NCBI GenBank assembly: GCA_008501735.1
Contig: QQUF01000035.1
Span: 62,001 to 126,000 of the forward strand
From: Calditrichota bacterium
GTDB lineage: Bacteria > CLD3
DNA length: 64,000 nt
Direction: 5' to 3'
Part shown: positions 17,538-38,105 of the stretch, in pieces
How the letters are laid out: each line of letters starts with the position of its first letter
How positions within the stretch are numbered: the first letter of the stretch is position 1
Notes under the pieces: generated by a model
The model's database searches: none
What the model saw: only the letters and a program-made list of their open reading frames with translations
Told to the model about the DNA's origin: nothing
Position numbers and translations under genes: made by a program

Positions 17538-18737
17538 ATGGAAAATATTTTACGAAAAATTTTTCCTGCAAAAGGTCAAAAGGAATTAATTGATTTTTTG
17601 GTTAAAACTCTCGCTCCTTTTATGCTAGTTCAAAAAGCAGAAGTTCTTGATGACCAAATTAATATTTTGGGAAAACCACAAAACTTCGGCGATAATTTTT
17701 ATTTCTCAATTCAAGACGAATTGCTTCGTAAGGGATTTTTCTCAAATGTAAAATTCGATTCCGAAAGCGGTAAACTCAATGTCCAAGTTTATTTGCCCGA
17801 AGCTCTTGAAGGAAAAAGACAACCGCTTTTTGCAAAACAAGAAAAACTTTGGCTAAACATTCTTCTTTTTGTTGTAACAATTTTTAGCACAATTTACGCA
17901 GAAGCATCTTTTGAAACAGGTTTCTTTGAAATCCTTGACAATCCAACTTTGCTTTGGAACGGAGTTTCGTTTTCGTTTTGTTTGTTAGCAATTTTGCTTT
18001 CTCACGAGTTTGGACACTACTTTGCAGCAATTTATCACAGAATGCCGACTTCACTTCCATTTTTCATTCCAATGCCATTTCTTGGCTTAATCGGAACAAT
18101 GGGAGCTTTTATCAAAATGCGTGCAAGAATGGAAAATCTCAAAAAACTTCTCGATGTCGGAGCAGCTGGTCCAATTGCAGGTTTTGTGATTTGCATTCCT
18201 GTTTTGATTTACGGAATAGCGACAAGTTCTTTGGTGGAAGTTTCTCCAAGATTTCTTGGCGAGGTTTCACAAATGAGTTTGGTTAGGCTAAGTCCTTACA
18301 GCGATTTCAATCTTTTTCTCGGCGAGCCACTTGTTATGAAATTCATAAAAATGGTAATTTGGGGTGAAGGAATTGCAGAAATGACTGCTCTGAATTTAAA
18401 CGGAATTGCTTTTGCCGGTTGGGTTGGACTTCTCGTAACTTCTTACAACTTGATGCCTGTTGGGCAACTCGATGGAGGACACATTCTTTACGCAACTTTT
18501 CCGCGTTACCACAAAACCGTTGCAAATACTTTTTGGGTTAGTTTGCTTGCTCTTGGTTACTTTACAGAATTTTATGGTTGGTTCGTTTGGGCTGGACTTT
18601 TATTCTTTATGAAACTAACTCATCCACCTGTTATGGATTATTCGGAAATTTCTAAGGAGCGAAAAGTCGTTTCATTAATTAGCTTAGTTATTTTTATACT
18701 TTGCTTTACACCAATTCCAATTGAAATAAGTTTTTAG
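17538..18737 (+). CDS. Site-2-protease-like M50 zinc metalloprotease
   Basis: A 399-residue membrane protein of the S2P/M50 family, which cleaves substrates within the membrane. The zinc-binding motif HEFGH lies in the helix LLAILLSHEFGHYFA, and the third ligand is in NLMPVGQLDGGHIL. About seven hydrophobic segments surround these. The N-terminal 110 residues are soluble and resemble the domain found ahead of plant-EGY1/cyanobacterial-type members. No PDZ domain is visible, so it is not a classical RseP. It sits 40 bp after the Rieske gene and 9 bp before the isomerase gene. Substrates are unknown. Confidence 0.85.
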   Translation: MENILRKIFPAKGQKELIDFLVKTLAPFMLVQKAEVLDDQINILGKPQNFGDNFYFSIQDELLRKGFFSNVKFDSESGKLNVQVYLPEALEGKRQPLFAKQEKLWLNILLFVVTIFSTIYAEASFETGFFEILDNPTLLWNGVSFSFCLLAILLSHEFGHYFAAIYHRMPTSLPFFIPMPFLGLIGTMGAFIKMRARMENLKKLLDVGAAGPIAGFVICIPVLIYGIATSSLVEVSPRFLGEVSQMSLVRLSPYSDFNLFLGEPLVMKFIKMVIWGEGIAEMTALNLNGIAFAGWVGLLVTSYNLMPVGQLDGGHILYATFPRYHKTVANTFWVSLLALGYFTEFYGWFVWAGLLFFMKLTHPPVMDYSEISKERKVVSLISLVIFILCFTPIPIEISF

Positions 18738-19934: not shown

Positions 19935-19955
19935 AAAACCTAAGGCAAATCTCAA
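19935..19955 (+). promoter_or_regulatory. Leader/ribosome-binding element repeated before every array gene
   Basis: The bases AAAACCTAAGGCAAATCTCAA precede the first NTPase gene. Almost the same element, from TAAGG to the ATG, precedes each of the next five genes. AAGG is the likely ribosome-binding core, 10 bases from the ATG. In the later copies its TAA is also the stop codon of the gene before. Confidence 0.7.
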
Positions 19956-22900
19956 ATGTTCATTCCAAGACACGAAACAGAAGTTTTGCAAAACAAGTTA
20001 AACCAAGCAATCCAAAATGGAATTGGTTCAACAATTCTAATTTCAGGTGAACCCGGAATCGGTAAAACTACTCTGATTAAAAATTTTATGGACAATTGCG
20101 ATGCAACTTCTGAAAAAAATGTTCTTACAGCAGTTGGTTCTTGCTTGGATATGGACGGAGTTTCTCGTGGTTTTCTTCCTTGGAGAGAAGTCTTAATTGA
20201 ACTTGATGCAGACAAAGCAGCAGGTAAAGACGAAGAGAAAAAGACTAATTTTAAAAAGATTGTAAAAACAGTTTTTGATGAAGCAGGTTCACAGTGGCTT
20301 GAAGCTATTCCTGTAATCGGAGACATTTCTTCTGCAATCTTTGAAACTGCAAAAACAATCTCAAAAGACGAATTGATTGACACTGAAACAGGAGATTCAA
20401 AAAAGTTAGCCTTAAAAGACAGACTCAAAAACGTTGCAAAAGAATGCACAGGAGAATGGCTAAATGTAATTCCTGTTGTTGGAAATCTTTCAGCAGCGAT
20501 TTACAAAACTACGAATGCAATTCAGAAGTCCAAGCAAGTAACTTACTCGCAAAACCAACAAGATTTTTTTATTCGAGTGATGAGTCGTTTTCGTGAACTT
20601 TGTGAAAACAATCCTGTTGTGATTTACATTGACGATTTGCAATGGGCTGACATTTCTTCGATGAATCTGTTTTTCTATTTGGCTAAGAATCTTAAAGACT
20701 CACCTTATCCGTTAGTTTTAATTGGTTCATTTCGACCACAAGACGTAAAAGACGGAAGACTCAACCCAATTGCGGGCGAAATGGAACGTCACCCTTGGGA
20801 AGAAAAAATTAACAATCTTCAGCGTTACAATGCTGTTGAGTTAATTGAGGTTTCTTATTTAAACCAAAATCAAATTGGTTCCTACATTGATTTACAATTT
20901 CCCAAAAATAAATTTTCACAAAAGTTCAAAGATGAAATTGTAAATCTTACGAGAGGCAATTCACTTTTTGTAAGAGAATTACTTTTGAACTTAGTAGAGC
21001 GAGAAATAATTTTTCAAAAAAACGAAACCTATTTTTCAGATGAAACTTTGGATTTATCCACTTTGCCAACAACAGTCTCAGGAGTAATCAAAGAAAGGTT
21101 TCAAAGATTGAGTGAAGATTTGCAAGAAATTCTTCAAGTAGCTTCTGCACAAGGAAGTGATTTTTCACTTGAACTAATTGCCACAATTTTAGAAATAAAT
21201 TCATTCAAATTAGGCAAAAAAGTAAACGAATTACAGCAAAAATATTCGCTTGTTCTAAAGTCCGAAACGGTTTACGACAAACTCAAAAAAATTTACAACT
21301 TCACTCACAACTTAGTTCAAAAGTATATTTATTATCAAATTAGCGAAGATTTTCGTTTGGACTTACATAGTGCTTTGGCTGAGGCTTTGGAGTCATTTTT
21401 TGAAGGCGATGAAATTTATAAAGTTGCAGAACCTTATTCTTATCACTTCGGAGTCGCGAATGGAATTATTGATGAAAATGGAAGATTAATTATTGAGGGT
21501 GATTTTGATGAAGAGAGTTTAAAAAAATATTTAGAGTTTCAAAATCTCCTTGCCCTAAATCATCGAGATAGCTATCAAAATGAAGAGGCTTTGGAGAAAT
21601 ATTTTAGAATCGTTGAAATTGCTAAAATATTATCAGATATTGAAAATGGAATAGAGGCAAAAAGGTCTATTTCAAGAATCCTTTCTTTAACAGGTAAAAT
21701 GAAAGATGCTTTAGTTTATTTGGAAGAAGCATTAGCAGAGGCAAAAGAGTATGGTTTTAGAAAAAGAGAAGCTAATCTTTTACTTGGAAAAGGATTTTAT
21801 CTGCTTTCACAAGGAGCATTCGATGAATCATTGGAAAATAACTATAAAGCCTTAGAAATTAGCAAAGATTTAAATGCTTTGGAAGCTACTGCACAAGCTT
21901 TAACAAATATTGGTATGGCTTTTTTTGAAAAAGGTTTTTATACAGAGACATTGGAATCTTATGCAAAAGCTTTAGAAATTTTGCATAAGATTGAAAATCC
22001 GCGAAATACAACTCAAGTTTACATTGGAATGGGAAATGTTTACAAAAATCAAGGAAAACTTGATAAAGCAATGGAATATTACACAAAAACTTTGGACGAT
22101 GAAAAATTGCGTGAAACTGACAATGCAAAAGCGGTGATTGTTAATATCGGAATTATTTACTATGAAAAAGGAGAATATGAAAAAGCATTAGAATACTATA
22201 ATCGTTTTTTAGAGATTTGTAAAAAAGTAGGTTATAAAAGAGGAATTGCCTTAGGAATGGCAAATTTGGGTTATGTATATGTTGCTCAAACCTTATACGA
22301 TAAAGCGATTGAATATGGCAAAGAATATTTAAAGATTAGCCAAGAATTAGGAGACAAAGTTTCCATAGGATATGCTTATGCACTTTTTGGAACAATTTAT
22401 TCCAGATTAGAGAAATTTGAGGAAGCATTCTCTTTTCAAAAAAAACGATTGGCAATTTTGGAAGAAATTGGATATAAAAGAGGAATTGGAAACGCCTTAA
22501 TATCAATTGGTTCACTTTACCCAATTTTTGGTGATTATGAAAAAGCAATGGAGCACTTACAAAGAGCATTGAAAATTGTTAAAGAAATGGGAGAAAAAAA
22601 TGAGATAGCAAGTGTTTATGGTTTTATAGCTTTGGCTTACTCCGACAAAGGAGATTATGCAAAAGCTATGTCTTATTTTAATAAGGAATTAAAAATCTTA
22701 GAGGAATTGGATAATGAAAGAAGCAAAGTTACTTGCTTGTCAAGAATCGGAAATGTTCATTTGCTTAAAGGTGAATTTAATGAGGCTAAATATTTTTTCC
22801 AAGAATGCATAAAAATTTTAGAGCAATTTAATGCCCCAGCTGATATTTCTGTAATTTGGGGGAAAATAGGAAGAATTCACATTCAAGAAGGAAATTTTGA

Positions 22901-23354
22901 AGAAGCTCAAAATTTATTTGAAAAAGGTCTTGATGCATTAAAAAACAGTCCAAAAAAATATAATATTGCAGAAATATGCCTTAATAAGGCAAAATTACTT
23001 TTTCAACTAAAGGATTATGAAAAATCCCAAAAAGCTAACGATGAGTGTTTAACTCTGTTTAAAAAAGTGGGTAGAAAAGACAAAGAGGCAAAACAGTTTT
23101 TATTTGAAAGCAATATTCTTTCCCTAAAATTAAATTTCATACTTAATGACAAAGTAAATCCACCTCAAGAACTTCTCGAAATGCTTTCGCAAACAAAAGA
23201 CGAAGAAGAAAAAGCAACTCTCAATTACGAACTTTGGAAAATGACTTCAGAAGAAAAATACAAAATTGAAGCATCAAAACTCTACCAAGAATTATATTCT
23301 AAAATTCCAAATTTCGAATACAAAAAACGCATCGAAGAACTTTCCCAAACCTAA
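19956..23354 (+). CDS. STAND-like NTPase with TPR array, copy 1
   Basis: A 1132-residue cytoplasmic protein, probably an ATP-driven switch. Walker A is GEPGIGKTT (31-39). Walker B with its following motif is VVIYIDDLQWAD (221-232), and LIGSFRPQD resembles the sensor strand of AAA_16/COG3899 ATPases. Residues 95-191 hold a duplicated hydrophobic insert. FTHNLVQKYIYYQ near 450 matches the conserved helix after the winged-helix part of such NTPases. From about 560 to 1060 there are roughly twelve TPRs of about 40 residues (pattern NIGxxYxxKGxYxxALEYYxxxL), then a tail (NPPQELLEMLSQT to the end). No nuclease, TIR, kinase, HTH or protease domain is visible at either end. MalT, COG3899-type regulators and antiphage Avs proteins share the general layout; the function here is unknown. 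Confidence 0.82.
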   Translation: MFIPRHETEVLQNKLNQAIQNGIGSTILISGEPGIGKTTLIKNFMDNCDATSEKNVLTAVGSCLDMDGVSRGFLPWREVLIELDADKAAGKDEEKKTNFKKIVKTVFDEAGSQWLEAIPVIGDISSAIFETAKTISKDELIDTETGDSKKLALKDRLKNVAKECTGEWLNVIPVVGNLSAAIYKTTNAIQKSKQVTYSQNQQDFFIRVMSRFRELCENNPVVIYIDDLQWADISSMNLFFYLAKNLKDSPYPLVLIGSFRPQDVKDGRLNPIAGEMERHPWEEKINNLQRYNAVELIEVSYLNQNQIGSYIDLQFPKNKFSQKFKDEIVNLTRGNSLFVRELLLNLVEREIIFQKNETYFSDETLDLSTLPTTVSGVIKERFQRLSEDLQEILQVASAQGSDFSLELIATILEINSFKLGKKVNELQQKYSLVLKSETVYDKLKKIYNFTHNLVQKYIYYQISEDFRLDLHSALAEALESFFEGDEIYKVAEPYSYHFGVANGIIDENGRLIIEGDFDEESLKKYLEFQNLLALNHRDSYQNEEALEKYFRIVEIAKILSDIENGIEAKRSISRILSLTGKMKDALVYLEEALAEAKEYGFRKREANLLLGKGFYLLSQGAFDESLENNYKALEISKDLNALEATAQALTNIGMAFFEKGFYTETLESYAKALEILHKIENPRNTTQVYIGMGNVYKNQGKLDKAMEYYTKTLDDEKLRETDNAKAVIVNIGIIYYEKGEYEKALEYYNRFLEICKKVGYKRGIALGMANLGYVYVAQTLYDKAIEYGKEYLKISQELGDKVSIGYAYALFGTIYSRLEKFEEAFSFQKKRLAILEEIGYKRGIGNALISIGSLYPIFGDYEKAMEHLQRALKIVKEMGEKNEIASVYGFIALAYSDKGDYAKAMSYFNKELKILEELDNERSKVTCLSRIGNVHLLKGEFNEAKYFFQECIKILEQFNAPADISVIWGKIGRIHIQEGNFEEAQNLFEKGLDALKNSPKKYNIAEICLNKAKLLFQLKDYEKSQKANDECLTLFKKVGRKDKEAKQFLFESNILSLKLNFILNDKVNPPQELLEMLSQTKDEEEKATLNYELWKMTSEEKYKIEASKLYQELYSKIPNFEYKKRIEELSQT
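20238..20528 (+). repeat. Internal duplication inside the NTPase domain (shown for copy 1)
   Basis: Residues 95-137 and 149-191 align with each other at a 54-residue spacing. The cores are EWLNVIPVVGNLSAAIYKT and QWLEAIPVIGDISSAIFET. Both combine a tryptophan, an IPV(I/V)G turn and a small-residue-rich hydrophobic helix. The same duplication recurs at the same place in all six genes. Confidence 0.8.
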
Positions 23355-23602
23355 GGCAAACCCCAAATGTTCATTCCAAGACACGAAACAGAAGTTTTAC
23401 AGAAAAAGCTAACTCAAGCAATCGAAAATGGAATTGGCTCAACAATTCTAATCTCTGGTGAACCTGGAATCGGTAAAACTACTCTCATTAAAAATTTTAT
23501 GGACAACTGCGACAGCACTTCTGAAAAGAACGTCTTAACAGCAGTTGGTTCTTGCTTGGATATGGACGGAGTTTCAAGAGGCTTTCTTCCTTGGAGAGAA
23601 GT
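22739..23602 (+). repeat. 864-bp near-identical block, first copy
   Basis: This stretch covers the last ~205 codons of gene 1, the 12-bp spacer and the first ~79 codons of gene 2. By eye it matches 29192-30055 with a single difference (23544 versus 29997). The block crosses a gene boundary, which points to recent conversion or segmental duplication. Confidence 0.9.
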
Positions 23603-26396
23603 TCTAATTGAACTTGACGCAGACAAAGCAGCGGGTAAAGACGAAGAGAAAAAATCTAATTTTAAAAAAATAGTCAAGACAGTTTTCGATGAAGCAGGTT
23701 CACAATGGCTTGAAGCAATTCCTGTAATCGGAGACATTTCTTCTGCAATCTTTGAGACTGCAAAGTCTGCAAAAAAAGATGAGTTGATTGACGTAGAAAC
23801 AGGAGATACAAAGAAACTTGCTTTAAAAGACAGACTTAAAAATGTAGCAAAAGAATGCACGGGAGAATGGCTCAACGTAATTCCTGTTGTTGGAAATTTG
23901 TCAGCTGCAATTTACAAGACAACAACTGCGATTCAGAAGTCAAAGCAAGTAACTTACTCACAAAATCAACAAGACTTTTTTATTCGAGTAATGAGCCGTT
24001 TTCGTGAACTTTGCGAAAACAATCCTGTTGTGATTTACATTGACGACTTGCAATGGGCAGATATTTCTTCGATGAATTTGTTTTTCTACTTAGCTAAGAA
24101 TCTTAAAGACTCACCTTATCCGTTAGTTTTAATTGGTTCATTTCGACCACAAGACGTAAAAGACGGAAGACTAAATCCAATTTCAGGTGAAATGGAACGT
24201 CATCCTTGGGAAGAAAAGATGAACAATCTTGACCGTTACGAAGCTTCTGAATTAATTGAAGTTTCTTACTTAGACCAAAATCAAGTAGGTTCATTCATAG
24301 ATTTACAATTCCCCAAAAACGAATTCGGTGTCAAGTTCAAAGATGAAATTGTAAACCTTACGAGAGGCAATTCTCTTTTTGTAAGAGAGCTTCTTCTGAA
24401 CCTTGAAGAACGGAAAATCATTTCTGAAAAATATGGGACATATTTTTCAGATGAAACTCTAGACCTTTCGACTTTACCAAAGACAGTTTCAGGAGTAATC
24501 AAAGAGAGATTCCAAAGATTGAGCGAAGAACTACAAGAAATTCTCCAAGTAGCTTCTGCACAAGGAAGTGATTTTTCATTGGAATTAATCAGTTCAATTT
24601 TGGAGGAAAATTCATTCAAAGTAAGCAAGAAAATCAATACACTTCAACAAAAGTACTCTCTAGTTTTGAAATCCGAGACAGTTTATGACAAACTCAAAAA
24701 AATTTACAATTTCACTCACAACTTAGTTCAAAAATACATTTATTACCAAATGAGCGAAGATTTTCGTTTGGACTTACACAGTGCTTTGGTTGAGACTTTA
24801 GAAGAGTTTTTCGAAGGTGATGAAATTTTCAAAATTGCTGAACCTTACTCTTATCATTTCGGAGTTGCTAACGGAATTATTGATGAAAACAGGAAACTCT
24901 TGTTAGATAAAAATCAAGTGAGTGATGAAATTTTAGATGAATATTTGAAATTTCAGAAAACACTTGCTGAAGATTTTCATAAAAATTATCAGTTTGAGGA
25001 AGCAACTAATAAGTATTTAGAATTAACTAATATTTACAAAATTCGAAATTATAAAGAAGCTGAAATTGAAGCAATGCTTGAACTTTGTAAAGTTTATACT
25101 TACTTAGGTGAATTTGATAAAACGATTTCGCAATTAGAGCTTTGTTTGATTGAGGCAGAGAAAGAAGATTTTCAAAAACTCATTGGAATTATTTGTCTTC
25201 GATTAGGAGAAGCTCTTTCAATTAAAGGTAAATATGAGAAAGCAGAAGAATTGTTTGAAAAGGCTTTAAAGATATTTGAAATAAGTGTAGATAAACACCA
25301 AGTAGCAACTTTAATTTCAGTAAAAGGCTCTAATAGTATAAGAAGAAATAACTATGAAGAAGCAATGAAGAATTTCAGAGAGTCTTTAAAAACCTTTGAA
25401 GAAGTTGGAGATCAAAAGAGGGTTGCAAAAATATCTGGAAATATTGGTGTTATTTATTTTAACAAAGGTGAATTTGACAAAGCATTAAAATATTTTGAAA
25501 GATGGTTAAAAATAAATAACGAACTTGGTGATAAAGGAAACTCTGCAAGGGCGTTAACAAATATTGCAAATGTTCATAGAACAAAAGGTGATAATGACAA
25601 AGCATTACAATTTGCCCAAGAAAGTTTAGAAATGGGTGAAGATATTGGAGATAAAATAAATATTGGACATATAGTCCGACTAATTGGAACGATTTACACA
25701 GAGAGAGGAGAATTGGATAGAGGCTTGCAATTTTATCAAAGAGGTTTAAAAATTTTTGAAAATTTATGCCTAAATCGAGAGATTGCTAATACAAAATTTT
25801 ATATCGGTGATATATATGGACGAAAAGAAATCTTTGATACAGAATTAAAATATTACTCAGATGCATTAAAAGTTATGGAAGAAGTAGGTGCAAAGAGAAT
25901 AATGTCACACTTATATGCAAATATGGGATTAAGTTATTTAAAAACAGAAAACCACACAAAATCTCTTGAGGTTTTTGAAAAGGGATTAGAAATTGCAAAT
26001 GAGTTGAAATTAATAGATATGATTACTGTGCATTTATCCTACAAAACAAAAGTATTAATCACTTTAGAAAAATTCGAAGAAGCTAAGATTGTAAACATCG
26101 AAGCAATAGAAGCAACTAAAAAATTAAATAGAAAAGATGAGACCTTTAAAATTAGACTCCAATCTTCAGTAATCGATTTCGCACTTGGTGACAAGGAAAA
26201 CCCTCCTAAAGAACTTCTCGAAATGCTTAGTCAAACAGAAGTAAAAGAAGAAATCGCAAACCTCAACTACGAGCTTTGGAAAATGACTTCCGAAGAAAAT
26301 TACAAGATTGAAGCACTAAAACTTTACCAAGAATTATATTCTAAAATTCCAAATTTCAAATATAAGAAATGTATTGAAGAGCTTTCCAAAACCTAA
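23367..26396 (+). CDS. STAND-like NTPase with TPR array, copy 2
   Basis: A 1009-residue paralogue of the preceding gene. The ATPase half is almost the same, but the first insert ends in AKSAKKDELIDVETGDTKK, where copies 1 and 3-6 have a (K/R)TISKDEL form. Its first ~79 codons are identical to copy 4 except for one base. The TPR half (about 560-940) is distinct and shorter, about nine repeats, with well-formed units such as NIGVIYFNKGEFDKALKYFE and TNIANVHRTKGDNDKALQFA. The conserved tail begins NPPKELLEMLSQT near residue 946. The GLN-like spacing and 'ELGDK' linkers resemble the LGN/GPSM type of TPR. It would bind peptides or proteins through the TPR superhelix and couple this to nucleotide-driven oligomerisation; ligand and output are not known. 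Confidence 0.82.
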   Translation: MFIPRHETEVLQKKLTQAIENGIGSTILISGEPGIGKTTLIKNFMDNCDSTSEKNVLTAVGSCLDMDGVSRGFLPWREVLIELDADKAAGKDEEKKSNFKKIVKTVFDEAGSQWLEAIPVIGDISSAIFETAKSAKKDELIDVETGDTKKLALKDRLKNVAKECTGEWLNVIPVVGNLSAAIYKTTTAIQKSKQVTYSQNQQDFFIRVMSRFRELCENNPVVIYIDDLQWADISSMNLFFYLAKNLKDSPYPLVLIGSFRPQDVKDGRLNPISGEMERHPWEEKMNNLDRYEASELIEVSYLDQNQVGSFIDLQFPKNEFGVKFKDEIVNLTRGNSLFVRELLLNLEERKIISEKYGTYFSDETLDLSTLPKTVSGVIKERFQRLSEELQEILQVASAQGSDFSLELISSILEENSFKVSKKINTLQQKYSLVLKSETVYDKLKKIYNFTHNLVQKYIYYQMSEDFRLDLHSALVETLEEFFEGDEIFKIAEPYSYHFGVANGIIDENRKLLLDKNQVSDEILDEYLKFQKTLAEDFHKNYQFEEATNKYLELTNIYKIRNYKEAEIEAMLELCKVYTYLGEFDKTISQLELCLIEAEKEDFQKLIGIICLRLGEALSIKGKYEKAEELFEKALKIFEISVDKHQVATLISVKGSNSIRRNNYEEAMKNFRESLKTFEEVGDQKRVAKISGNIGVIYFNKGEFDKALKYFERWLKINNELGDKGNSARALTNIANVHRTKGDNDKALQFAQESLEMGEDIGDKINIGHIVRLIGTIYTERGELDRGLQFYQRGLKIFENLCLNREIANTKFYIGDIYGRKEIFDTELKYYSDALKVMEEVGAKRIMSHLYANMGLSYLKTENHTKSLEVFEKGLEIANELKLIDMITVHLSYKTKVLITLEKFEEAKIVNIEAIEATKKLNRKDETFKIRLQSSVIDFALGDKENPPKELLEMLSQTEVKEEIANLNYELWKMTSEENYKIEALKLYQELYSKIPNFKYKKCIEELSKT

Positions 26397-26408
26397 GGCA
26401 AATCACAA

Positions 26409-29400
26409 ATGTTCATTCCAAGACACGAAACAAAAGTTTTACAGGAAAAACTAAACCAAGCAATCCAAAATGGAATTGGTTCAACAATTCTAATTTCAGG
26501 TGAACCCGGAATCGGTAAAACTACTTTAATCAAAAATTTTATGGACAATTGCGATGCCACTTCTGAAAAGAATGTCCTTACAGCAGTTGGTTCTTGTCTC
26601 GATATGGACGGAGTTTCTCGTGGTTTTCTTCCTTGGAGAGAAGTCTTAATTGAACTTGATGCAGACAAAGCAGCTGGAAAAGACGAAGAGAAAAAAACTA
26701 ACTTCAAAAAGATTGTAAAAACAGTTTTCGATGAAGCAGGTTCACAATGGCTTGAAGCAATTCCTGTAATCGGAGACATTTCTTCGGCTATTTTTGAGAC
26801 TGCAAAGACAATCTCAAAAGACGAATTAATTGATGTTGAAACAGGAGATACAAAAAAACTTGCTTTAAAAGACAGACTCAAAAATGTGGCAAAAGAATGC
26901 ACAGGAGAATGGCTGAATGTAATTCCTGTTGTAGGAAATTTGTCAGCTGCGATTTACAAAACTACGAATGCGATTCAGAAATCTAAACAAATGACTTATT
27001 CGCAAAATCAGCAAGACTTTTTTATTCGAGTGATGAGTCGTTTTCGAGAACTTGCTGAGAACAATCCTGTAATTATTTATATTGACGACTTGCAATGGGC
27101 AGATATTTCTTCGATGAATCTGTTTTTCTATTTGGCAAAGAATCTTAAAGACTCAACCTATCCAATGGTTCTAATCGGTTCGTTCAGACCACAAGACGTG
27201 AAAGATGGAAGGCTCAATCCAATTTCGGGTGAAATGGAACGACATCCTTGGGAAGAAAAAATGAACAATCTTGACCGCTACGATGCAGCAAAATTGATTG
27301 AAGTTTCTTATTTAAACCAAAATCAAATTGGTTCTTACATTGATTTACAATTTCCACAAAATGAATTCGGTGCCAAGTTTAAAGATGAAATTGTAAACCT
27401 TACGAGAGGCAATTCTCTTTTTGTAAGAGAACTTCTTCTGAATCTTGAAGAACGGAAAATCATTTATGAAAAAGATGGAACATATTTTTCAGATGAAACT
27501 CTAGACCTTTCGACTTTGCCAAAGACAGTTTCGGGAGTAATTAAAGAAAGATTTCAAAGGTTAAGTGAAGATTTACAGGAAGTCTTGCAAATTGCTTCGG
27601 CTCAGGGAAGTGATTTTTCACTCGAATTAATTGCTTCAATTCTTGAAGTAAACAATTTCAAACTCAGTAAGAAGATTAATACACTTCAACAAAAGTATTC
27701 ACTTGTTCTCAAATCCGAGACAGTTTATGACAAACTTAAGAAGATTTATAATTTCACTCACAATTTAGTTCAAAAATATATTTACTACCAAATGACAGAA
27801 GATTTCAGATTGGATTTACACAGTGCTTTGGTGGAGACTTTAGAATCATTTTTTGAAGGTGATGAAATTTATAAGATTGCTGAACCTTACTCTTACCACT
27901 TTGGAATTGCAAATGGAATTATCGATGAAAATGGAAAATTAATAATCGAAAATAATTTTGATGAGGAAAGTTTACAAAAATATTTGGAATTCCAAAATCT
28001 TCTTGCTGAAAAATTTAAAAATAATTACCAAAACGAAGAAGCTTTAGAAAAATTTTTCAAAATCATTGAACTTGCTAAACTTTTATCTGACAAGAAAAAT
28101 GAATTGAATGCAAAATTAGAAATTTCTCAAGTTTTCGGAATATTCGGAAATTTAGATAATGCCATTTCTTTTTGTGAAAAAGTTATCAAAAAGTCAAGGA
28201 AATTAGGTTTAAAAATAATTGAGTCAGATAGCCTAATTGTAAGAGGAAGGATTTATATACGACAAGGGTTCTACGATGAATCAATGGATTGCTATCAACA
28301 ATCTTTAGAGATAAAGAAAAATTTAGGCGATTTAAAAGCCGTTGCAAAAATACTATCCTATATTGGAAGGATTTATGCTGAAAAAGGTTATTACAATGAA
28401 GCATTGGAATTTTTTTCAAATTCTATAAAAGCATTTGAAGAAATCGGTAAACCTCAAGAAACATCATTTGCTTATATTGGAATGGGCAATATCTACAGAG
28501 ATAAAGGAGATTACGACAAAGCATTGGAATTTTATAACAAACTCTTAGAAGATGAGAAAATGAGAAAAAATGGAAATGCACAATCAGTAATACTCAATAT
28601 AGGAAATATACACTACGAACGAGGTGAATATGAAGAAGCAATAAAATGCTATAACCAAGTTTGGGAATTTAGTAAAAAGACAGGTCACAAAAGAGGAATT
28701 GCTATGGCTAAGGGAAACTTGGGTTATGTTTATGTTGATCAAACTTTATACGGTAAAGCCATTGAGTATGGCGAAGAATATTTAAAAATTAGCCAAGAGT
28801 TAGGAGAAAAAGTTTCAATCGGATATGCATATTCACTTTTGGGAACAATTTATTTCAGATTAGAGAAATTTGAAAAGGCATTTTCCTATCAAAAAAAACG
28901 ATTGGCAATTTTTGAAGAAATTGGATTTAAAATAGGCATTGGAAACGCCTTAGTATCACTTGGCTCGCTTTACCCAATTTTTGGCGATTATGAAAAAGCA
29001 ATTCAACACTTACTAAGAGCTTTGAAAATTGTCAAAGAAATAGGGGATAAAAAAGAAATTGCAAATATTTACGGTTATTTAGCTGCAATTTACTCCGACA
29101 AAGGAGATTATGCAAAAGCAATGTCTTATTTTAATAAGGAATTAAAAATCTTAGAGGAGTTGGATAATGAAAGAAACAAAGTTACTTGCTTATCAAGAAT
29201 CGGAAATGTTCATTTGCTTAAAGGTGAATTTAATGAGGCTAAATATTTTTTCCAAGAATGCATAAAAATTTTAGAGCAATTTAATGCCCCAGCTGATATT
29301 TCTGTAATTTGGGGGAAAATAGGAAGAATTCACATTCAAGAAGGAAATTTTGAAGAAGCTCAAAATTTATTTGAAAAAGGTCTTGATGCATTAAAAAACA

Positions 29401-30055: not shown

Positions 30056-32591
30056 CTTAATTGAACTTGATGCAGACAAAGCAGCAGGTAAAGATGAGGA
30101 AAAGAAGTCTAACTTTAAAAAAATAGTAAAAACTGTTTTCGATGAAGCAGGTTCTCAGTGGCTTGAAGCAATTCCTGTAATCGGAGACATTTCTTCTGCA
30201 ATTTTTGAGACTGCAAAGACAATCTCAAAAGACGAATTAATTGATGTTGAAACAGGAGATACAAAAAAACTTGCTTTAAAAGACAGACTCAAAAATGTTG
30301 CAAAAGAATGTACAGGAGAATGGCTGAATGTAATTCCTGTTGTAGGAAATTTGTCAGCTGCGATTTACAAAACTACGAATGCGATTCAGAAATCTAAGAA
30401 AATTAGTTACGCACAAAATCAGCAAGACTTTTTCATTCACGTAATGTCTCAGCTTCGTGAACTTGCAGAACACAACCCTGTTATGATTTACGTTGACGAT
30501 TTGCAATGGGCTGACATTTCTTCGATGAATCTGTTTTTCTATTTGGCAAAGAACTTGAAAGATTCACCTTATCCAATGGTTTTAATTGGCTCATTCCGAC
30601 CTCAAGACGTGAAAGATGGAAGACTCAATCCAATTTCAGGCGAAATTGAGCGTCATCCTTGGGAAGAAAAAATTAATAACTTGAAACGTTACGATGCAGC
30701 AGAGTTCGTTGAAGTTTCTTACTTAAATCAAAAACAAATTTCATCTTACATTGATTTGCAGTTTCCAAAGAATGAATTCAGCGAAAAGTTTAAAGAGGAA
30801 ATAGTAAATCTCACAAGAGGTAATTCGCTTTTTGTTCGGGAACTTTTACTTAACCTTGAAGAACGAAAAATCATTTTTGTAAAAAACGGAACTTACTTTG
30901 CAGACGAAACATTAGATATTTCAACTTTACCACAAACAGTTACAGGAATTATTGAGGAAAGATTTCAAAGGCTTAGTGAAGATTTGCAGGAGATTTTGCA
31001 AATTGCTTCTGCACAAGGAAGTGATTTTTCTTTGGAATTAATTAGTGCAATTTTAGAAATTAAGACATTCAAACTTAGTACAAAGATGAATGCCTTACAG
31101 CAGAAGTATTCACTTGTCCTAAAGTCAGAGACAGTTTATGACAAACTCAAAAAGATTTACAATTTCACTCACAACTTAGTTCAAAAATACATTTACTACC
31201 AAATGAGTGAGGATTTCAGATTAGATTTACACAGTGCTTTGGTTGACACTTTGGAAGACTTTTTTGAAGGAGAAGAAATTTACAAAGTTGCAGAACCTTA
31301 CTCTTATCACTTTGGAGTTGCGAATGGAATTATTGATGAAAACGGGAAACTGCAAATTGAAAATGAAATTGAAAAAGAGAGTTTGAAGAAGTATTTGGAG
31401 TTTCAAAAATACTTAGCAGATAATTTGAAAAAGAGTTATCAAAATGAAGAAGCAATTTCTAAATATTCTGAACTTTGTGAAATTGCAAAACTTCTGGGTG
31501 ACAAGAAATTAGAAATGAAATTTAGACTAACCTTAGCTCAAATTTATTTTAGAGTCTCTCAATATGAAAAAGCACTTTCATTTTCTAAAGAGGCTTTGGA
31601 AGAGTGTAAAAAATACAATTTGAGAATGCAAGAAGCAGATTTTCATTTAGAGGTTGGGAATTCATTAAGCGTACAAGGTAATAAAGAAGAGTCAAGGAAA
31701 CATTACGAACAATCTTTAGCACTTTATGAAGAATTAAATGACAAAATTGGACAAGCAAATGTGTTAGGAAATATTGGGAATCTTTTTGATAAGATAAATG
31801 AATCTAAAGTAGCTGAAGAATATTTTAGAAAAGCATTAAAGCTAAATAACGAACTTGGAAATAAATCAGGAGCTTCAAAAAATATCGGAAATATAGGTGT
31901 TATTTATGGGGTAAAAGGTGAGTTTGATAAATGTCTAAAATACTTTGAAGATTCTTCCGAGATGAGAAAAGGCAGCAATGACAAAAATGGAATTGCCTTG
32001 AATATTGGAAATATGGGAGCTGTTTATGGAAACAAAGGTGAGTTTGATAAAGCTTTAAAATGCTATAAAGAAAGTTTAAAAATTAGCGAAGAGATTGGTG
32101 ACCGAAGTAATCTCTCTCATTTTTTTGCAAACATTGGACTAATTTATAGTTATAAATGTGAGTTTGAAGATGCTTTGGAATTCCTTCATAAAAGTTTAAA
32201 AATTAATGAGGAAATTGGATTTAAGGGTGGAAAATTATATACTTTAAGATTGATGGCAATAGCTTACTACAGAATAAAAAATTACCCTAAAACCAAAGAA
32301 TGTTTTGAAAAAATATTGGGACTCTCAAGTAGTCTAAATTTCGAACTTAGAGTTATAGAACAAAAAATGAATTTTAAACTTGGAGACTCCAAAAACCCTC
32401 CTAAAAAGCTTCTCAAAATGCTTGCTGAAACAGAAGACAAAGAAGAAATTGCAAACCTCAAGTACGAACTCTGGAGAATGACTTCCGAAGAGGAATACAG
32501 AATTGAAGCATTAAAACTCTTCCAAGAATTATATTCTAATTATCCTTACTTTATTTACAAAGAGAGTATCGATAAACTTTCCTCTAAATAA
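29820..32591 (+). CDS. STAND-like NTPase with TPR array, copy 4
   Basis: A 923-residue paralogue. The Walker A region is identical to copy 2. Before Walker B the sequence departs from the others (KKISYAQNQQDFFIHVMSQL, then VMIYVDDLQWAD), so the constant half is itself a mosaic. About seven TPRs (560-850) include an unusually regular set with the GxVYGNKGEFDKALK pattern repeated three times. The tail begins NPPKKLLKMLAET near residue 859. It is shorter than copies 1-3 because TPR units are absent from the middle, not because of a frameshift; the reading frame is intact throughout. Expected location cytoplasmic; no signal or membrane helix. Confidence 0.82.
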   Translation: MFIPRHETEVLQKKLTQAIENGIGSTILISGEPGIGKTTLIKNFMDNCDSTSEKNVLTAIGSCLDMDGVSRGFLPWREVLIELDADKAAGKDEEKKSNFKKIVKTVFDEAGSQWLEAIPVIGDISSAIFETAKTISKDELIDVETGDTKKLALKDRLKNVAKECTGEWLNVIPVVGNLSAAIYKTTNAIQKSKKISYAQNQQDFFIHVMSQLRELAEHNPVMIYVDDLQWADISSMNLFFYLAKNLKDSPYPMVLIGSFRPQDVKDGRLNPISGEIERHPWEEKINNLKRYDAAEFVEVSYLNQKQISSYIDLQFPKNEFSEKFKEEIVNLTRGNSLFVRELLLNLEERKIIFVKNGTYFADETLDISTLPQTVTGIIEERFQRLSEDLQEILQIASAQGSDFSLELISAILEIKTFKLSTKMNALQQKYSLVLKSETVYDKLKKIYNFTHNLVQKYIYYQMSEDFRLDLHSALVDTLEDFFEGEEIYKVAEPYSYHFGVANGIIDENGKLQIENEIEKESLKKYLEFQKYLADNLKKSYQNEEAISKYSELCEIAKLLGDKKLEMKFRLTLAQIYFRVSQYEKALSFSKEALEECKKYNLRMQEADFHLEVGNSLSVQGNKEESRKHYEQSLALYEELNDKIGQANVLGNIGNLFDKINESKVAEEYFRKALKLNNELGNKSGASKNIGNIGVIYGVKGEFDKCLKYFEDSSEMRKGSNDKNGIALNIGNMGAVYGNKGEFDKALKCYKESLKISEEIGDRSNLSHFFANIGLIYSYKCEFEDALEFLHKSLKINEEIGFKGGKLYTLRLMAIAYYRIKNYPKTKECFEKILGLSSSLNFELRVIEQKMNFKLGDSKNPPKKLLKMLAETEDKEEIANLKYELWRMTSEEEYRIEALKLFQELYSNYPYFIYKESIDKLSSK

Positions 32592-32603
32592 GGCAAATCC
32601 CAA

Positions 32604-35390
32604 ATGTTCATTCCAAGACACGAAACAGAAGTTCTACAAGAAAAACTAAACCAAGCAATCGAAAATGGAATCGGTTCAACAATACTAATTTCGGGTGAAC
32701 CCGGAATTGGTAAAACTACTCTCGTTAAAAATTTTATGGACAACTGCGACAGCACTTCTGAAAAGAACGTCTTAACAGCAGTTGGTTCTTGCTTGGATAT
32801 GGACGGAGTTTCTCGTGGTTTTCTTCCTTGGAGAGAAGTTCTAATTGAACTTGACGCAGACAAAGCAGCGGGTAAAGACAAAGAGAAAAAATTTAACTTT
32901 AAAAAAATAGTAAAAACTGTTTTCGATGAAGCAGGTTCACAGTGGCTTGAAGCAATTCCTGTTATCGGAGACATTTCTTCTGCAATCTTTGAAACTGCTA
33001 GAACAATCTCAAAAGATGAACTCATCGACACAGAGACAGGCGATTCCAAGAAACTTGCCTTAAAAGACAGACTCAAAAACGTAGCAAAAGAATGTACAGG
33101 AGAATGGTTAAATGTAATTCCTGTCGTAGGAAATCTGTCAGCAGCGATTTACAAAACAACAACTGCAATTCAGAAATCTAAGCAAGTAACTTACTCGCAA
33201 AACCAACAAGACTTTTTCATTCGAATGATGAACAGATTCAGAGAATTAGCGGAAACAAATCCAGTTGTGATTTACGTTGACGACTTGCAATGGGCAGATA
33301 TTTCTTCAATGAATTTATTTTTCTACTTAGCCAAAAACCTTAAAGATTCACCTTATCCTTTAGTTCTGATTGGTTCATTTCGACCAGAAGATATAAAGAA
33401 TGGAAGATTAAATCCAATTTCTGGTGAAATAGAAAGACATCCTTGGGAAGAGAAAATTAATAATTTGAATCGTTACGGTGCAGTTGTGGAAATAAAAATT
33501 AGTTACTTGAGTAATAATCAAATCTTAGATTTTATAAATTTACAATTTCCGCAAAATGAGTTTTCTAATGGGTTCAAAAACGAAATTATCAATCTTACGA
33601 GAGGCAATTCACTTTTTGTCAAAGAGTTAATTTTGAATTTACAGGAAAGAGGAATCATATTCCAAGTTGATGGAAAATTTTATTCAGATGAGACTTTGGA
33701 TTTATCAACTTTACCAACAACTGTTTCGGGTGTAATTGAAGAAAGATTCCAAAGGCTTAGCGAAGATTTACAAGAAGTTTTACAAATTGCCTCAGTGCAA
33801 GGAAGTGATTTTTCTTTAGAATTAATAAGCACTGTCTTAGAAGAAAATAATTTCAAACTTTTAAAAAAGGTTCAAGATTTACAACAAAAATATTCTCTAA
33901 TCTTGAAATCTGAGACAGTTTACGATAAACTGAAAAAGATTTATGAATTTGTCCACAACTTGGTTCAGAAATATATTTACTACCAAATGAGTGAGGATTT
34001 TAGATTAGGCTTACACGGAATTTTGGCAGAAACTTTGGAGTCATTTTTTGAAGGTGATGAGATTTTTAAAGTTGCAGAACAGTATTCGTTTCACTTTGGA
34101 GTTGCGAACCAAATTATCTCTGAAAATGGTAAGATTTCTTTTAACAACATTGGAATCGAAAGTGAAAAATTAGACAAATATTTAAAATTCCAAATTTACC
34201 TTGCTGAAAATTATAGGAAAAATTATCAGAACGAAGAGGCAATTAATAAATTATTCGAATTAGTCGAAATCTATAAATTACAATCGAAAAAAGAAGCCGA
34301 AGTAAAAACCAAATTAAAGATTTCAAAAACTTATTCTCTAATGGGTGAGTTTGGAAAAGCGTTACCAATTTCGGAAAAATGTCTTGCCGATTCGGAAGAG
34401 CATAATTTTAGAGATTTGTTTGGGATTGCACAAAATCAAATTGGCTTAATTTCTATGAACCAAGGTAACTTTGAGAAGGCTTTAGAATTTTACAAAAGCT
34501 CTTTGGAAATCAGTACGGAATTAGGAGATAAAGCTAAAATTTCAGAAACAATCTCACTAATAGGTCTAATTTATTCGGACAAAGGTGAATTAGACAAAGC
34601 AATGCAGCAGTATCAAAAATCATTGATGATTTGCGAAGAATTGGAAGATAAAGTTGGAATTTCATACGCTTACGGAAATATGGGAAATATTTATTCTTCA
34701 CAAGGAAATAAAGAAAAGGCAATGGAGTGTTGCAAAAAACTTTTGGAAATTAGTGAAGAGATAAAAAACAAACGAGGAATTGCATTTGCGGTTGGCAACA
34801 TTGGAACTCTTTTTTTAGAAGCAAAAGAGTATGCAAAGGCTTTGGATTATTTGCAAAAAGCAAAAAAAATAAGTGAGGAATTAGGCAATAGAAACGGATT
34901 ACTAATAAGTTTTATAAATATTGGGAAAATTTATAAAGCTCAAGGTAACTTTGAAAAAGCAATAGAGTATTTTGACAAATCCATCAAGTTGGCAAAAGAA
35001 TTAGGAATCAAATTTTTCTTAAGCCTACTGCTAATTGGCAAAGCAGAAATATTATTTTTTCTAAAAAACTTGAGTGAAGCTAAAAAAATAATCTCCGAAG
35101 GTTTAGAAATCGCAAAAGAAATAGGCAAAAAAGACGATATTTTCAAAGGTAAACTACTTTCCTCCAAAATAGATTTTGCACTTGGAGACAAGGAAAATCC
35201 ACCAAAACAACTCCTCGAAATACTCACTGAAACAAAAGACAAAGTTGAAATTGCAGATTTAAACTACGAACTTTGGAAAATGACATCTGACAGAAAGTAT
35301 AAAATCGAAGCATTAAACCTCTACCAAAGATTATATTCTAAAACCCAAAAAGATTATTTTAAAAAATACATTGAAGAACTAGAAAACTAA
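32604..35390 (+). CDS. STAND-like NTPase with TPR array, copy 5
   Basis: A 928-residue paralogue with more substitutions in the ATPase half than copies 1-4: GKDKEKKFNFKK in the first insert, FRPEDIKNGRLN after the sensor strand, and YEFVHNLVQKY in the helix that reads YNFTHNLVQKY elsewhere. Walker A (GEPGIGKTTLVKNF) and Walker B (VVIYVDDLQWAD) are intact. The TPR region (about 560-860) has seven or so units, for example IGLIYSDKGELDKAMQQYQ and YGNMGNIYSSQGNKEKAME. The tail starts NPPKQLLEILTET near residue 865. The following spacer (GGTAAGTCACAA) is the most diverged of the five. This copy and copy 6 look older than the 1-4 pairs. Confidence 0.82.
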   Translation: MFIPRHETEVLQEKLNQAIENGIGSTILISGEPGIGKTTLVKNFMDNCDSTSEKNVLTAVGSCLDMDGVSRGFLPWREVLIELDADKAAGKDKEKKFNFKKIVKTVFDEAGSQWLEAIPVIGDISSAIFETARTISKDELIDTETGDSKKLALKDRLKNVAKECTGEWLNVIPVVGNLSAAIYKTTTAIQKSKQVTYSQNQQDFFIRMMNRFRELAETNPVVIYVDDLQWADISSMNLFFYLAKNLKDSPYPLVLIGSFRPEDIKNGRLNPISGEIERHPWEEKINNLNRYGAVVEIKISYLSNNQILDFINLQFPQNEFSNGFKNEIINLTRGNSLFVKELILNLQERGIIFQVDGKFYSDETLDLSTLPTTVSGVIEERFQRLSEDLQEVLQIASVQGSDFSLELISTVLEENNFKLLKKVQDLQQKYSLILKSETVYDKLKKIYEFVHNLVQKYIYYQMSEDFRLGLHGILAETLESFFEGDEIFKVAEQYSFHFGVANQIISENGKISFNNIGIESEKLDKYLKFQIYLAENYRKNYQNEEAINKLFELVEIYKLQSKKEAEVKTKLKISKTYSLMGEFGKALPISEKCLADSEEHNFRDLFGIAQNQIGLISMNQGNFEKALEFYKSSLEISTELGDKAKISETISLIGLIYSDKGELDKAMQQYQKSLMICEELEDKVGISYAYGNMGNIYSSQGNKEKAMECCKKLLEISEEIKNKRGIAFAVGNIGTLFLEAKEYAKALDYLQKAKKISEELGNRNGLLISFINIGKIYKAQGNFEKAIEYFDKSIKLAKELGIKFFLSLLLIGKAEILFFLKNLSEAKKIISEGLEIAKEIGKKDDIFKGKLLSSKIDFALGDKENPPKQLLEILTETKDKVEIADLNYELWKMTSDRKYKIEALNLYQRLYSKTQKDYFKKYIEELEN

Positions 35391-35402
35391 GGTAAGTCAC
35401 AA

Positions 35403-38105
35403 ATGTTCATTCAACGACACGAAACAGAAGTTTTACAGAAAAAATTAAGCCAAGCAATCGAAAATGGAATCGGTTCAACAATTCTAATTTCAGGTGAACC
35501 CGGAATCGGTAAAACTACTTTAATCAAAAACTTTATGGACAATTGTGACAAAGCTTCAGAAAAGAATGTTCTCACAGCAATTGGTTCTTGCTTAGATATG
35601 GACGGAGTTTCGAGAGGTTTTTTGCCTTGGCGAGAAGTTCTAATTGAACTTGACGCAGACAAAGCAGCAGGTAAAGATGAGGAAAAGAAGTCTAACTTTA
35701 AAAAAATAGTAAAAACTGTTTTCGATGAAGCAGGTTCACAATGGCTTGAAGCTATTCCTGTAATCGGAGACATTTCTTCTGCAATCTTTGAAACAGCAAA
35801 GACAATCTCTAAAGATGAATTAATTGACACTGAAACAGGCGATTCTAAGAAATTAGCTTTAAAAGACAGACTCAAAAACGTTGCAAAAGAATGCACAGGA
35901 GAATGGCTGAATGTAATTCCTGTTGTCGGGAATTTGTCAGCAGCAATTTACAAAACAACCAATGCCATTCAGAAATCTAAACAAGTAACTTACTCACAGA
36001 ATCAACAAGATTTTTTTGTTAGAGTTATGCACAGATTTCGTGAATTGGCAGAATCTAATCCTGTTGTAATTTATATTGATGACTTGCAATGGGCAGATAT
36101 TTCTTCAATGAATCTTTTTTTCTACTTATCCAAAAATTTAAAAGACGAGCCTTATCCAATGGTTTTGATTGGTTCCTTCAGACCACAAGACATAAAAGAT
36201 GGAAGACTGAATCCAATTTCAGGTGAAGTAGAAAGACATCCTTGGGAAGAAAAGATAAATAATCTTCAGCGTTACAGTGCTATTGACTTAGTTGAAGTCT
36301 CTTACTTAGACCAGAGCCAAATTGGTTCTTACATTGATTTGCGGTTTCCACAAAATGAATTTAGTGCAAAATTTAAAAATGAAATTGCAACACAGACTAA
36401 AGGCAACTCACTCTTTGTTAGAGAACTTTTACTGAATTTGGAAGAACGAGAAATCATCTATGAAAAAGATGGAATGTATTTCTCAGACGAAACTTTGGAC
36501 TTAACAACTTTACCGACCACAGTTTCTGGTGTAATTGAAGAAAGATTCCAAAGGTTAAAGGAAGAATTGCAAGAAGTTTTGCAAATTGCTTCTGTTCAAG
36601 GAACTGATTTTTCTTTGGAAGTCATCGGTACAATTTTAGAAGACAGTAATCTGAAACTACTCAAAAAAGTCCAAGAATTACAAAAGAAATATTCCCTAAT
36701 TTTGAAGTCGGAAACAGTTTACGACAAACTAACTAAGATTTACAACTTTACACACAATTTGGTTCAAAAATACATTTACTACCAAATTAATGAAGATTTT
36801 AGACTTGAAATCCATTCGATGATTGTTGAAACTTTAAAGAATTTCTTTGAGGGTGATGAAATTTACAAAGTTGCTGAACAGTATTCTTTTCACTTTGGAG
36901 TCGCTAATGAAATTATTGATGAAAATGGGAAAATCATTTTTTCAATTGAAGCCTACTCAGAAGAAACTTTAAATGAATACTTAAAATTCATAAAGTATTT
37001 GGGAGAAAAATATAAAGACGAGTACCGCAATGAAGAAGCAATAGGGAAATATTTGACAATAATTGAAATCCTAAAAATTAAAGCTGATAACGAAGCTGAA
37101 ATTATGGCTCAAATTGACATTTCAAAAATTTATACTTTTATCGGCAAAGTTGACGAAGCTATTTCGGTTTTAAAAAAGTGTTCGGAACAAGCCCAAAACC
37201 TCTCCTTTAAAAAATTGCAAGGAGTTGCTTTTAACGAAATTGGAGTAAACCTGGTTTATCAAGGTAATTTTGACGAAGGTATGAAGTATTTTTTAAAACA
37301 AGTTGAAATTTGCAATGAGATTGGAGAAAAAGATAAAATCTTAAATGTTTACGGAAATATGGGAGTTGTTTATGCAGAAAAGGGTGATTATGACAACTCT
37401 ATCGAAAGTTTCCAAAAATCATTAAAAATCGGCAAAGAAATCGGTGACAAAAAAGGAATTGGAAACGCAATTGGAAACATTGGAATTGTTTACACCGAAA
37501 AAAACGAATTAGGCAAAGCAATGGAGTGTTTTGAGGAACAACAAAGAATTTATGAAGAAATCGGTGACAAAAATGGAGTTTCAATTGCACTTGGAAATAT
37601 GGGCAGGGTTTATGGGAGCCAAAAAAATCCAGGAAAAGCAATTGAGTGTTACAGAAAACAGATAAAAATTTGTGAGAAACTCGGCAACAAAAGAGGAATT
37701 TCGATTGCTTCAGGAAATATTGGTAGTGTTTTTAAAGGTATCAAAAGTTATGAAAAGGCTATGGAGTATTTCCAAAAGAAAATGATTCTTTGTAAAGAGT
37801 TGGGAGATAATTTCGGGCTTTCAATTGTACTTGGAAATATCGGAGAAATTCATAGGATAAATGGAGAGTTCGACAAAACTTTAGAGAATTTTGATAAGGC
37901 AATCGAAGTTTTAAGAAATCTAGGAATCCCAAGATACTTGTGTAACCAACTAATGGAAAAAGCTGATTTACTTTTTTCGACTAAAAAATATGAAAATGCA
38001 AAAGCCATAAACTCAGAAGTCCAAAAGCTTGCTGATAAAAACAATCTAAATGAATTTATTGATAGAAGTAGAAGCCTTGCAGAAAAGATAAATTCAGTAA
38101 TTTAA
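35403..38105 (+). CDS. STAND-like NTPase with TPR array, copy 6, lacking the conserved tail
   Basis: A 900-residue paralogue and the last of the array. It starts MFIQRHETEV where all others have MFIPRHE. Walker A, the duplicated insert and Walker B (VVIYIDDLQWAD) are intact. About eight TPRs follow (560-890), many ending in 'EIGDKxGxxxALGNMG'-type linkers that are almost perfectly periodic. Unlike the other five it lacks the closing NPPxxLLExLxxT...ELWKMTS tail and ends NLNEFIDRSRSLAEKINSVI. Either the tail was lost at the array edge, or copies 1-5 keep it because each 3' end is duplicated together with the next leader. A convergent terminator overlaps the stop codon. Confidence 0.82.
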   Translation: MFIQRHETEVLQKKLSQAIENGIGSTILISGEPGIGKTTLIKNFMDNCDKASEKNVLTAIGSCLDMDGVSRGFLPWREVLIELDADKAAGKDEEKKSNFKKIVKTVFDEAGSQWLEAIPVIGDISSAIFETAKTISKDELIDTETGDSKKLALKDRLKNVAKECTGEWLNVIPVVGNLSAAIYKTTNAIQKSKQVTYSQNQQDFFVRVMHRFRELAESNPVVIYIDDLQWADISSMNLFFYLSKNLKDEPYPMVLIGSFRPQDIKDGRLNPISGEVERHPWEEKINNLQRYSAIDLVEVSYLDQSQIGSYIDLRFPQNEFSAKFKNEIATQTKGNSLFVRELLLNLEEREIIYEKDGMYFSDETLDLTTLPTTVSGVIEERFQRLKEELQEVLQIASVQGTDFSLEVIGTILEDSNLKLLKKVQELQKKYSLILKSETVYDKLTKIYNFTHNLVQKYIYYQINEDFRLEIHSMIVETLKNFFEGDEIYKVAEQYSFHFGVANEIIDENGKIIFSIEAYSEETLNEYLKFIKYLGEKYKDEYRNEEAIGKYLTIIEILKIKADNEAEIMAQIDISKIYTFIGKVDEAISVLKKCSEQAQNLSFKKLQGVAFNEIGVNLVYQGNFDEGMKYFLKQVEICNEIGEKDKILNVYGNMGVVYAEKGDYDNSIESFQKSLKIGKEIGDKKGIGNAIGNIGIVYTEKNELGKAMECFEEQQRIYEEIGDKNGVSIALGNMGRVYGSQKNPGKAIECYRKQIKICEKLGNKRGISIASGNIGSVFKGIKSYEKAMEYFQKKMILCKELGDNFGLSIVLGNIGEIHRINGEFDKTLENFDKAIEVLRNLGIPRYLCNQLMEKADLLFSTKKYENAKAINSEVQKLADKNNLNEFIDRSRSLAEKINSVI

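What the first reader, a model, noticed from the sequence alone, without database searches (positions are those of the whole stretch)
20238..20528. Internally duplicated hydrophobic insert between Walker A and Walker B of the array NTPases
Seen: residues 95-137 and 149-191 align, each with W-L-x-x-I-P-V-(I/V)-G-(D/N)-(I/L)-S-(S/A)-A-I and a preceding basic stretch, repeated in all six genes. The usual AAA core has no such insert. The IPVVG turn flanked by small hydrophobic residues looks like a membrane-active or oligomerisation hairpin. Since no other effector is seen, this is the best candidate for the output module. That is inference.
Basis: partly seen in the sequence, partly recalled or inferred. 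Interest (0 to 1): 0.62.

Follow-up and report, generated by a model that had tools for sequence, protein, structure and literature searches.

The report
Duplicated helical hairpin in STAND ATPases
The doubled hydrophobic stretch is real, but it is a tandem copy of a helical hairpin that many related soluble bacterial signalling ATPases carry once at the same spot, so it looks like an enlarged regulatory surface and not a hidden membrane toxin.

Summary
Residues 95-137 and 149-191 of the NTPase at 19956-23354 align at 18/43 identity, above all 5,000 shuffles. Both copies occur in all six array genes and in four more genes of the genome. The reading as a private output insert does not hold. The proteins are AAA_16/STAND NTPases with TPR tails. 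Relatives in Gemmatimonadota and Bacteroidota carry the same W-L-x-x-I-P-x-x-G hairpin once, at the same place between Walker A and Walker B. A profile built only from those foreign single copies recovers both copies in this genome and little else. No segment is hydrophobic enough for a membrane helix. By helix order the element sits where solved TPR-STANDs (PH0952, MalT) carry the ISMb helix, which touches the TPR sensor and keeps the protein off (PMC6468293). Best explanation: a duplicated ISMb-type hairpin acting as a regulatory docking surface. Only the duplication is unusual; it was seen in no other of 156 segments. AlphaFold does not place it confidently, so sensor docking versus NBD-NBD contact stays open.

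The parts
19956..23354 (+). NTPase 1 of the array: AAA_16/STAND NTPase with TPR tail, 1132 aa
   Evidence: ORF; Pfam AAA_16 58.1 bits against cut-off 32.6, many TPR models
20046..20069 (+). Walker A, GEPGIGKT, residues 31-38
   Evidence: sequence
20175..20222 (+). helix 74-89 after strand beta2, by order the ISM helix of STAND/initiator-type NBDs
   Evidence: AlphaFold model secondary structure; description of ISM/ISMb in PMC6468293
20238..20366 (+). copy 1 of the duplicated helical hairpin, residues 95-137 (WLEAIPVIGDISSAI)
   Evidence: hhalign to foreign single-copy elements E 5e-8
20367..20399 (+). acidic linker between the copies, residues 138-148
   Evidence: sequence; least conserved piece of the 1-191 region among the ten paralogues, 78% nucleotide identity
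20400..20528 (+). copy 2 of the duplicated helical hairpin, residues 149-191 (WLNVIPVVGNLSAAI); closest to the single-copy element of Gemmatimonadota relatives
   Evidence: hhalign E 1e-8 over 36 columns; score 77 against L138, 57 for copy 1
20544..20603 (+). helix 197-216 before Walker B, by order helix H2
   Evidence: AlphaFold model
20622..20651 (+). Walker B strand, IYIDDLQWAD, residues 223-232
   Evidence: sequence
23649..23939 (+). same duplicated hairpin in NTPase 2 (gene 23367-26396)
26691..26981 (+). same duplicated hairpin in NTPase 3 (gene 26409-29807)
30102..30392 (+). same duplicated hairpin in NTPase 4 (gene 29820-32591)
32886..33176 (+). same duplicated hairpin in NTPase 5 (gene 32604-35390)
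35685..35975 (+). same duplicated hairpin in NTPase 6 (gene 35403-38105)
21633..23090 (+). variable TPR part of NTPase 1 (about residues 560-1045), the probable sensor
   Evidence: identity among the six proteins falls from 0.88-0.97 (residues 1-280) to 0.10-0.42 here; TPR models

Best explanation
The stretch is not an added effector. [quoted passage not shown] It lies between the ISM helix and helix H2, at the position of the ISMb helix of TPR-sensor STANDs. I infer that it works as in PH0952 and MalT: in the resting protein the NBD tip with this element packs against the arm/TPR sensor and helps hold the ADP form closed. A signal on the TPRs breaks the contact and lets the protein assemble. 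The second copy enlarges that surface. Shown: homology, position, copy number, lack of membrane character, strong purifying selection. Inferred: equivalence to ISMb, docking on the TPR or arm, and the effect of the duplication.
For: Family: AAA_16 plus TPR; fold match of the model to MalT, PH0952, CED-4, Apaf-1 and plant NLRs. Single-copy homologues at the same place: L051, L055, L136, L137, L138 (APYW[LI]xxIPxxG, Walker A to B distance 136-138 against 195 here) and L164, L165, L166, L171, L175, L176 in Bacteroidota. Single-copy profile against copy 1 E 5e-8, against copy 2 E 1e-8; the same profile used on the whole genome finds both copies of the family genes and otherwise only two weak places. 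Helix order: beta2 57-62, helix 74-89, two hairpins, helix 197-216, Walker B strand 221-226 in this protein, and beta2 57-62, helix 74-85, one hairpin 93-108/117-131, helix 143-160, strand 163-168 in the single-copy relative L055. PH0952 has exactly two extra helices, ISM and ISMb, between strand S2 and H2; ISMb wedges into TPR repeat 4, and MalT ISMb mutations M96T and H102Y give gain of function (PMC6468293). dN/dS 0.04-0.05 in both copies.
Against: The hairpin(s) have low pLDDT in both models (mostly below 50 here, 46-65 in the single-copy relative), so packing is unknown and ISMb equivalence rests on helix order, not on superposition. The insert is among the most conserved blocks of the six paralogues (identity 0.94-0.97) whereas the TPR part is the least (0.10-0.42); a surface docking on the variable TPRs should vary with them, so the partner may be the arm, the conserved part of the sensor, or another NBD. 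Lower dS in codons 1-191 than after shows recent homogenisation, which weakens but does not remove this objection.
Confidence: 0.5

Rival explanations
1. Homotypic assembly surface: the hairpins stick out from the NBD and make contacts between neighbouring protomers, also between different paralogues, in the active ring or filament.
For: The insert is nearly invariant among ten paralogues while their sensors differ, as expected for a shared interface; STAND NBD faces mediate oligomerisation (MalT R143/R173, PMC10427625); the genes are co-arranged with 12-nt gaps.
Against: No oligomer could be modelled; no tool result places the hairpins on a lateral face; gene conversion of the 5' part could also cause the invariance.
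Confidence: 0.27
2. Docking platform for a partner in trans, such as the nucleotide cyclase STAND encoded between two paralogues, which would carry the output.
For: Class III cyclase + AAA_16 + TPR gene (L031 8425-11913) lies between two family members, same strand, gaps of 2 and 15 bases.
Against: No cyclase was found among the genes next to the six-gene array that were scanned; no interaction evidence; a cyclase link of the single-copy relatives was not looked for.
Confidence: 0.12
3. Membrane-active or toxic output hairpin.
For: Proline-glycine turns flanked by small hydrophobic residues; no other effector domain in the protein.
Against: Best 19-mer insertion cost +9.0 against +0.3 for a true membrane helix; helical moment at most 0.32; homologous single element inside AAA_16 proteins, with a related one in a kinase fusion.
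Confidence: 0.05
4. Structural elaboration of the NBD without a dedicated function; the duplication is neutral and spread by gene conversion.
For: The site tolerates other insertions: Thermoplasmata relatives have 225-236 residues between Walker A and B with unrelated sequence; dS is lower in codons 1-191 than after.
Against: dN/dS about 0.04-0.05 in both copies and near-invariance with old divergence between the copies argue that each copy is kept by selection.
Confidence: 0.06

Closest known systems
PH0952 (6MFV) and E. coli MalT (8BOB), TPR-sensor STAND ATPases
   Same: NBD-HD-WHD order then TPR sensor; extra helices between strand S2 and H2 (ISM, ISMb) in PH0952; fold match
   Different: One ISMb helix there; two hairpins of about 43 residues here. 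MalT has a DNA-binding output domain, none seen here
Single-hairpin AAA_16 proteins of Gemmatimonadota (L051, L055, L136, L137, L138) and Bacteroidota (L164, L165, L166, L171)
   Same: Same element W-[LIV]-x-x-[IV]-P-x-x-G or a close variant at the same place; TPRs follow in most of those scanned
   Different: One copy; Walker A-B distance mostly 135-142 (171 in L165) against 195
Chloroflexota/Deinococcus/Parabacteroides AAA_16 proteins (L043, L029, L030, L057)
   Same: Among the best-scoring relatives over 1-487; RHP motif shared by the Deinococcus and Parabacteroides proteins
   Different: Region reads (G/A)PDL(I/V)xxxxPG; similarity of that stretch to the hairpin is not significant
Avs/AVAST and NLR-like defence STANDs
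   Same: STAND fold (Avs3 8dgc matches the L055 model)
   Different: No effector domain; no PADLOC defence model matched beyond a weak mads_8 and TPR models

Membership tests
AAA_16 (Pfam PF13191, COG3899-type ATPases) | profile match above the gathering score | tested here: met
   58.1 bits against 32.6
STAND ATPases | Walker A and Walker B in an NBD with ISM helix, followed by HD and WHD | tested here: met
   motifs; helix order; Foldseek matches to Apaf-1, CED-4, MalT, PH0952 with prob 1.00, but TM only 0.27-0.47 normalised by the query
STAND ATPases | C-terminal repeat sensor | tested here: met
   many TPR models in the C-terminal half
STAND ATPases | effector domain at one end | tested here: not met
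   none by Pfam, NCBIfam, PADLOC; the literature says 'generally', not always
ISMb element of TPR-STANDs | helix between ISM and H2 | tested here: met
   position by helix order
ISMb element of TPR-STANDs | packs on the TPR sensor in the resting form | not testable with these tools
   insert pLDDT < 50; no multimer or experiment
Single-copy WLxxIPxxG hairpin family | significant profile similarity at the same position | tested here: met
Membrane-active hairpin effectors | hydrophobic or strongly amphipathic segment | tested here: not met

The most novel reading that the evidence does not exclude
The duplicated hairpin is a shared assembly code: all ten paralogues, with different TPR sensors, join through it into mixed rings or filaments, so that one array makes a combinatorial sensor hub whose output lies in a separate partner such as the cyclase.
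Probability: 0.1. Interest if true: 0.6.

Novelty: new variant of a known kind. Interest (0 to 1): 0.28.

Why it matters
It removes a tempting but unsupported lead (a hidden membrane effector) and puts the stretch on a known regulatory surface of STAND ATPases. If the ISMb reading is right, a natural duplication of the autoinhibition element, fixed in a ten-member family with variable sensors, offers a clean system to test how NBD-sensor contacts set the activation threshold.

Tried and rejected
The search for related loci with the insert alone in genome contigs and with residues 1-315 in viral contigs: no relative. Phage records: none. Nine genomes of the phylum (own included): no family member outside the own genome. 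Search with the 43-aa copy-2 profile in 301 genomes of the phylum of the Chloroflexi record L043: empty, and uninformative without a positive control. Sequence search of the PDB: mostly the P-loop part matched. AlphaFold of this protein and of a single-copy relative: core good, hairpin region poor in both, so the packing question is not settled. The (G/A)PDL...PG stretch of Chloroflexota/Deinococcus relatives was considered the same element, but pairwise scores are not significant. Membrane hypothesis tested and rejected on hydropathy.

Full report
WHAT IS THERE. Window 19956-38105 holds six head-to-tail genes on the + strand (1132, 1009, 1132, 923, 928, 900 aa), 12 bases apart. Each protein has Walker A GEPGIGKT at residue 31 and Walker B DDLQWAD at 226; the first and last, which were scanned, have an AAA_16 match over 7-256 and a long TPR tail. 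The finding's interval 20238-20528 is exactly codons 95-191 of the first gene. The two 43-residue copies share 18 residues, score far above shuffles (z about 19) and repeat with a period of 54 residues. DNA identity between the copies is 71/129, so the duplication is old. The genome has ten such genes: six here, two at C41 37-45 kb and two on the short contig C35, one cut by its end.

IS IT AN INSERT FOREIGN TO THE FAMILY? No. tblastn of plasmids gave two full-length relatives, in Deinococcus aetherius and Parabacteroides distasonis. A genome-contig scan with the resulting alignment gave 80 relatives. Searches of 298 and 396 genomes, from the phyla of a Gemmatimonadetes and a Bacteroides record, gave more. 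I extracted 156 Walker A to Walker B segments. Their median length is 129 residues, against 195 here. Gemmatimonadota proteins have 136-138 and read, for example, AKQVAPYWLQVIPVAGDLIAAAAQTATELRRT (L138). Bacteroidota proteins read LAFAWVKFVPIVGDVIESTVETV (L166) or TAPNWISLVPVLGPVVGAAAEIV (L165). A kinase-AAA_16 fusion (L169) has APTWLVQMPGL there, a weaker but above-chance match. hhalign of an alignment of eleven foreign single copies against copy 1 gives E 5e-8 and against copy 2 gives E 1e-8. Used alone on the whole 4.1 Mb genome, that foreign profile returns 22 places, of which 20 are the two copies in the ten genes. Copy 2 scores higher than copy 1 against the single-copy elements of all five Gemmatimonadota proteins, in one case by a single point, so copy 1 is probably the added one; that is inference.

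THE DUPLICATION ITSELF is unusual. Self-comparison of all 156 segments gives z 14-20 for the family members and at most 5.8 for any other. No family member outside the own genome was found in the nine genomes held for the phylum. The sampling of that phylum is thin, so 'unique to this genome' is not proven.

STRUCTURE. AlphaFold2 of residues 1-487 with 47 sequences gives most of the core above pLDDT 85, but 115-195 below 50, predicted as helices 93-116, 118-133, 149-164, 178-192. The single-copy relative L055 gives one hairpin, 93-108 and 117-131, again with low confidence (pLDDT blocks 46-65). TM-scores are modest. In PH0952, two helices, ISM and ISMb, are inserted between strand S2 and helix H2. 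ISMb is wedged between two helices of TPR repeat 4, and in MalT ISMb substitutions M96T and H102Y give gain of function (PMC6468293). The helix order in both models places the hairpin(s) at the ISMb position. This is equivalence by order, not by superposition.

MEMBRANE OR OUTPUT? The most favourable 19-mer in the insert costs +9.0 kcal on the biological insertion scale (scale values entered from memory), against +0.3, +1.3 and +1.8 for segments of the S2P-like membrane protein at 17538-18737; TPR segments of the same protein reach +6.5. Eisenberg moments are at most 0.32. This does not fit a membrane hairpin. As to an output: in the second cluster a class III nucleotide cyclase with AAA_16 and TPRs (L031 8425-11913, minus) lies between two family members with gaps of 15 and 2 bases. 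So signalling through a cyclase in trans is a possibility. The scanned neighbours of the six-gene array are ordinary metabolic, repair and secreted-protein genes.

MECHANISM. I commit to a regulatory NBD surface. The favoured version is autoinhibitory docking to the arm/TPR sensor as in PH0952/MalT, with the duplication enlarging it (0.5). The main rival is a homotypic assembly surface (0.27). The strongest point for the rival is that the insert is among the best conserved blocks of the six proteins (0.94-0.97) while the TPRs are the least (0.10-0.42). dN/dS in the copies is 0.04-0.05 against about 0.10-0.11 in residues 266-487, and dS is also lower in the first 191 codons (0.48-0.80, apart from the short linker) than after (1.25-1.65), which points to recent homogenisation of the 5' part.

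VERDICT. Not an effector on present evidence.

Noticed in passing
L031:5254-14579 (G000 C41 about 35.3-44.6 kb): Two further family members flank a class III adenylate/guanylate cyclase with AAA_16 and TPRs, same strand, gaps of 2 and 15 bases: a possible output partner of this STAND family.
   Followed up: partly
19956-38105: Array proteins have near-identical 5' parts (codons 1-191, lower dS), divergent TPR middles and, in five of six, a similar C-terminal end (NYELWKMTSEE-YKIEALKLYQELYS): pattern of gene conversion with variable sensors.
   Followed up: partly
23126-23425 and 29579-29878: The ends of NTPases 1 and 3 running into the next gene are 100% identical DNA over at least 300 bases, and about the last 215 residues of the two proteins are practically identical: a sign of recent exchange.
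   Followed up: no
L046, L053, L056, L059, L060: Thermoplasmata and DHVE2-group archaeal AAA_16-TPR proteins have 225-236 residues between Walker A and B with an unrelated inserted stretch (SLACVIEGxxxEFLIDDM) that looks like a small domain (Roadblock-like by eye); Pfam did not name it in the four scanned.
   Followed up: partly
19952-20449, 23414-23875, 26393-26902, 32555-33076, 35411-35896 (minus): Open frames antisense to the 5' part of five array genes; their similarity follows from the conserved sense strand and they are probably shadows.
   Followed up: no
15551-17497: 648-aa protein with an N-terminal repeat of about 17 residues (KNETAAEKPKMETKKDS) before a Rieske domain.
   Followed up: no
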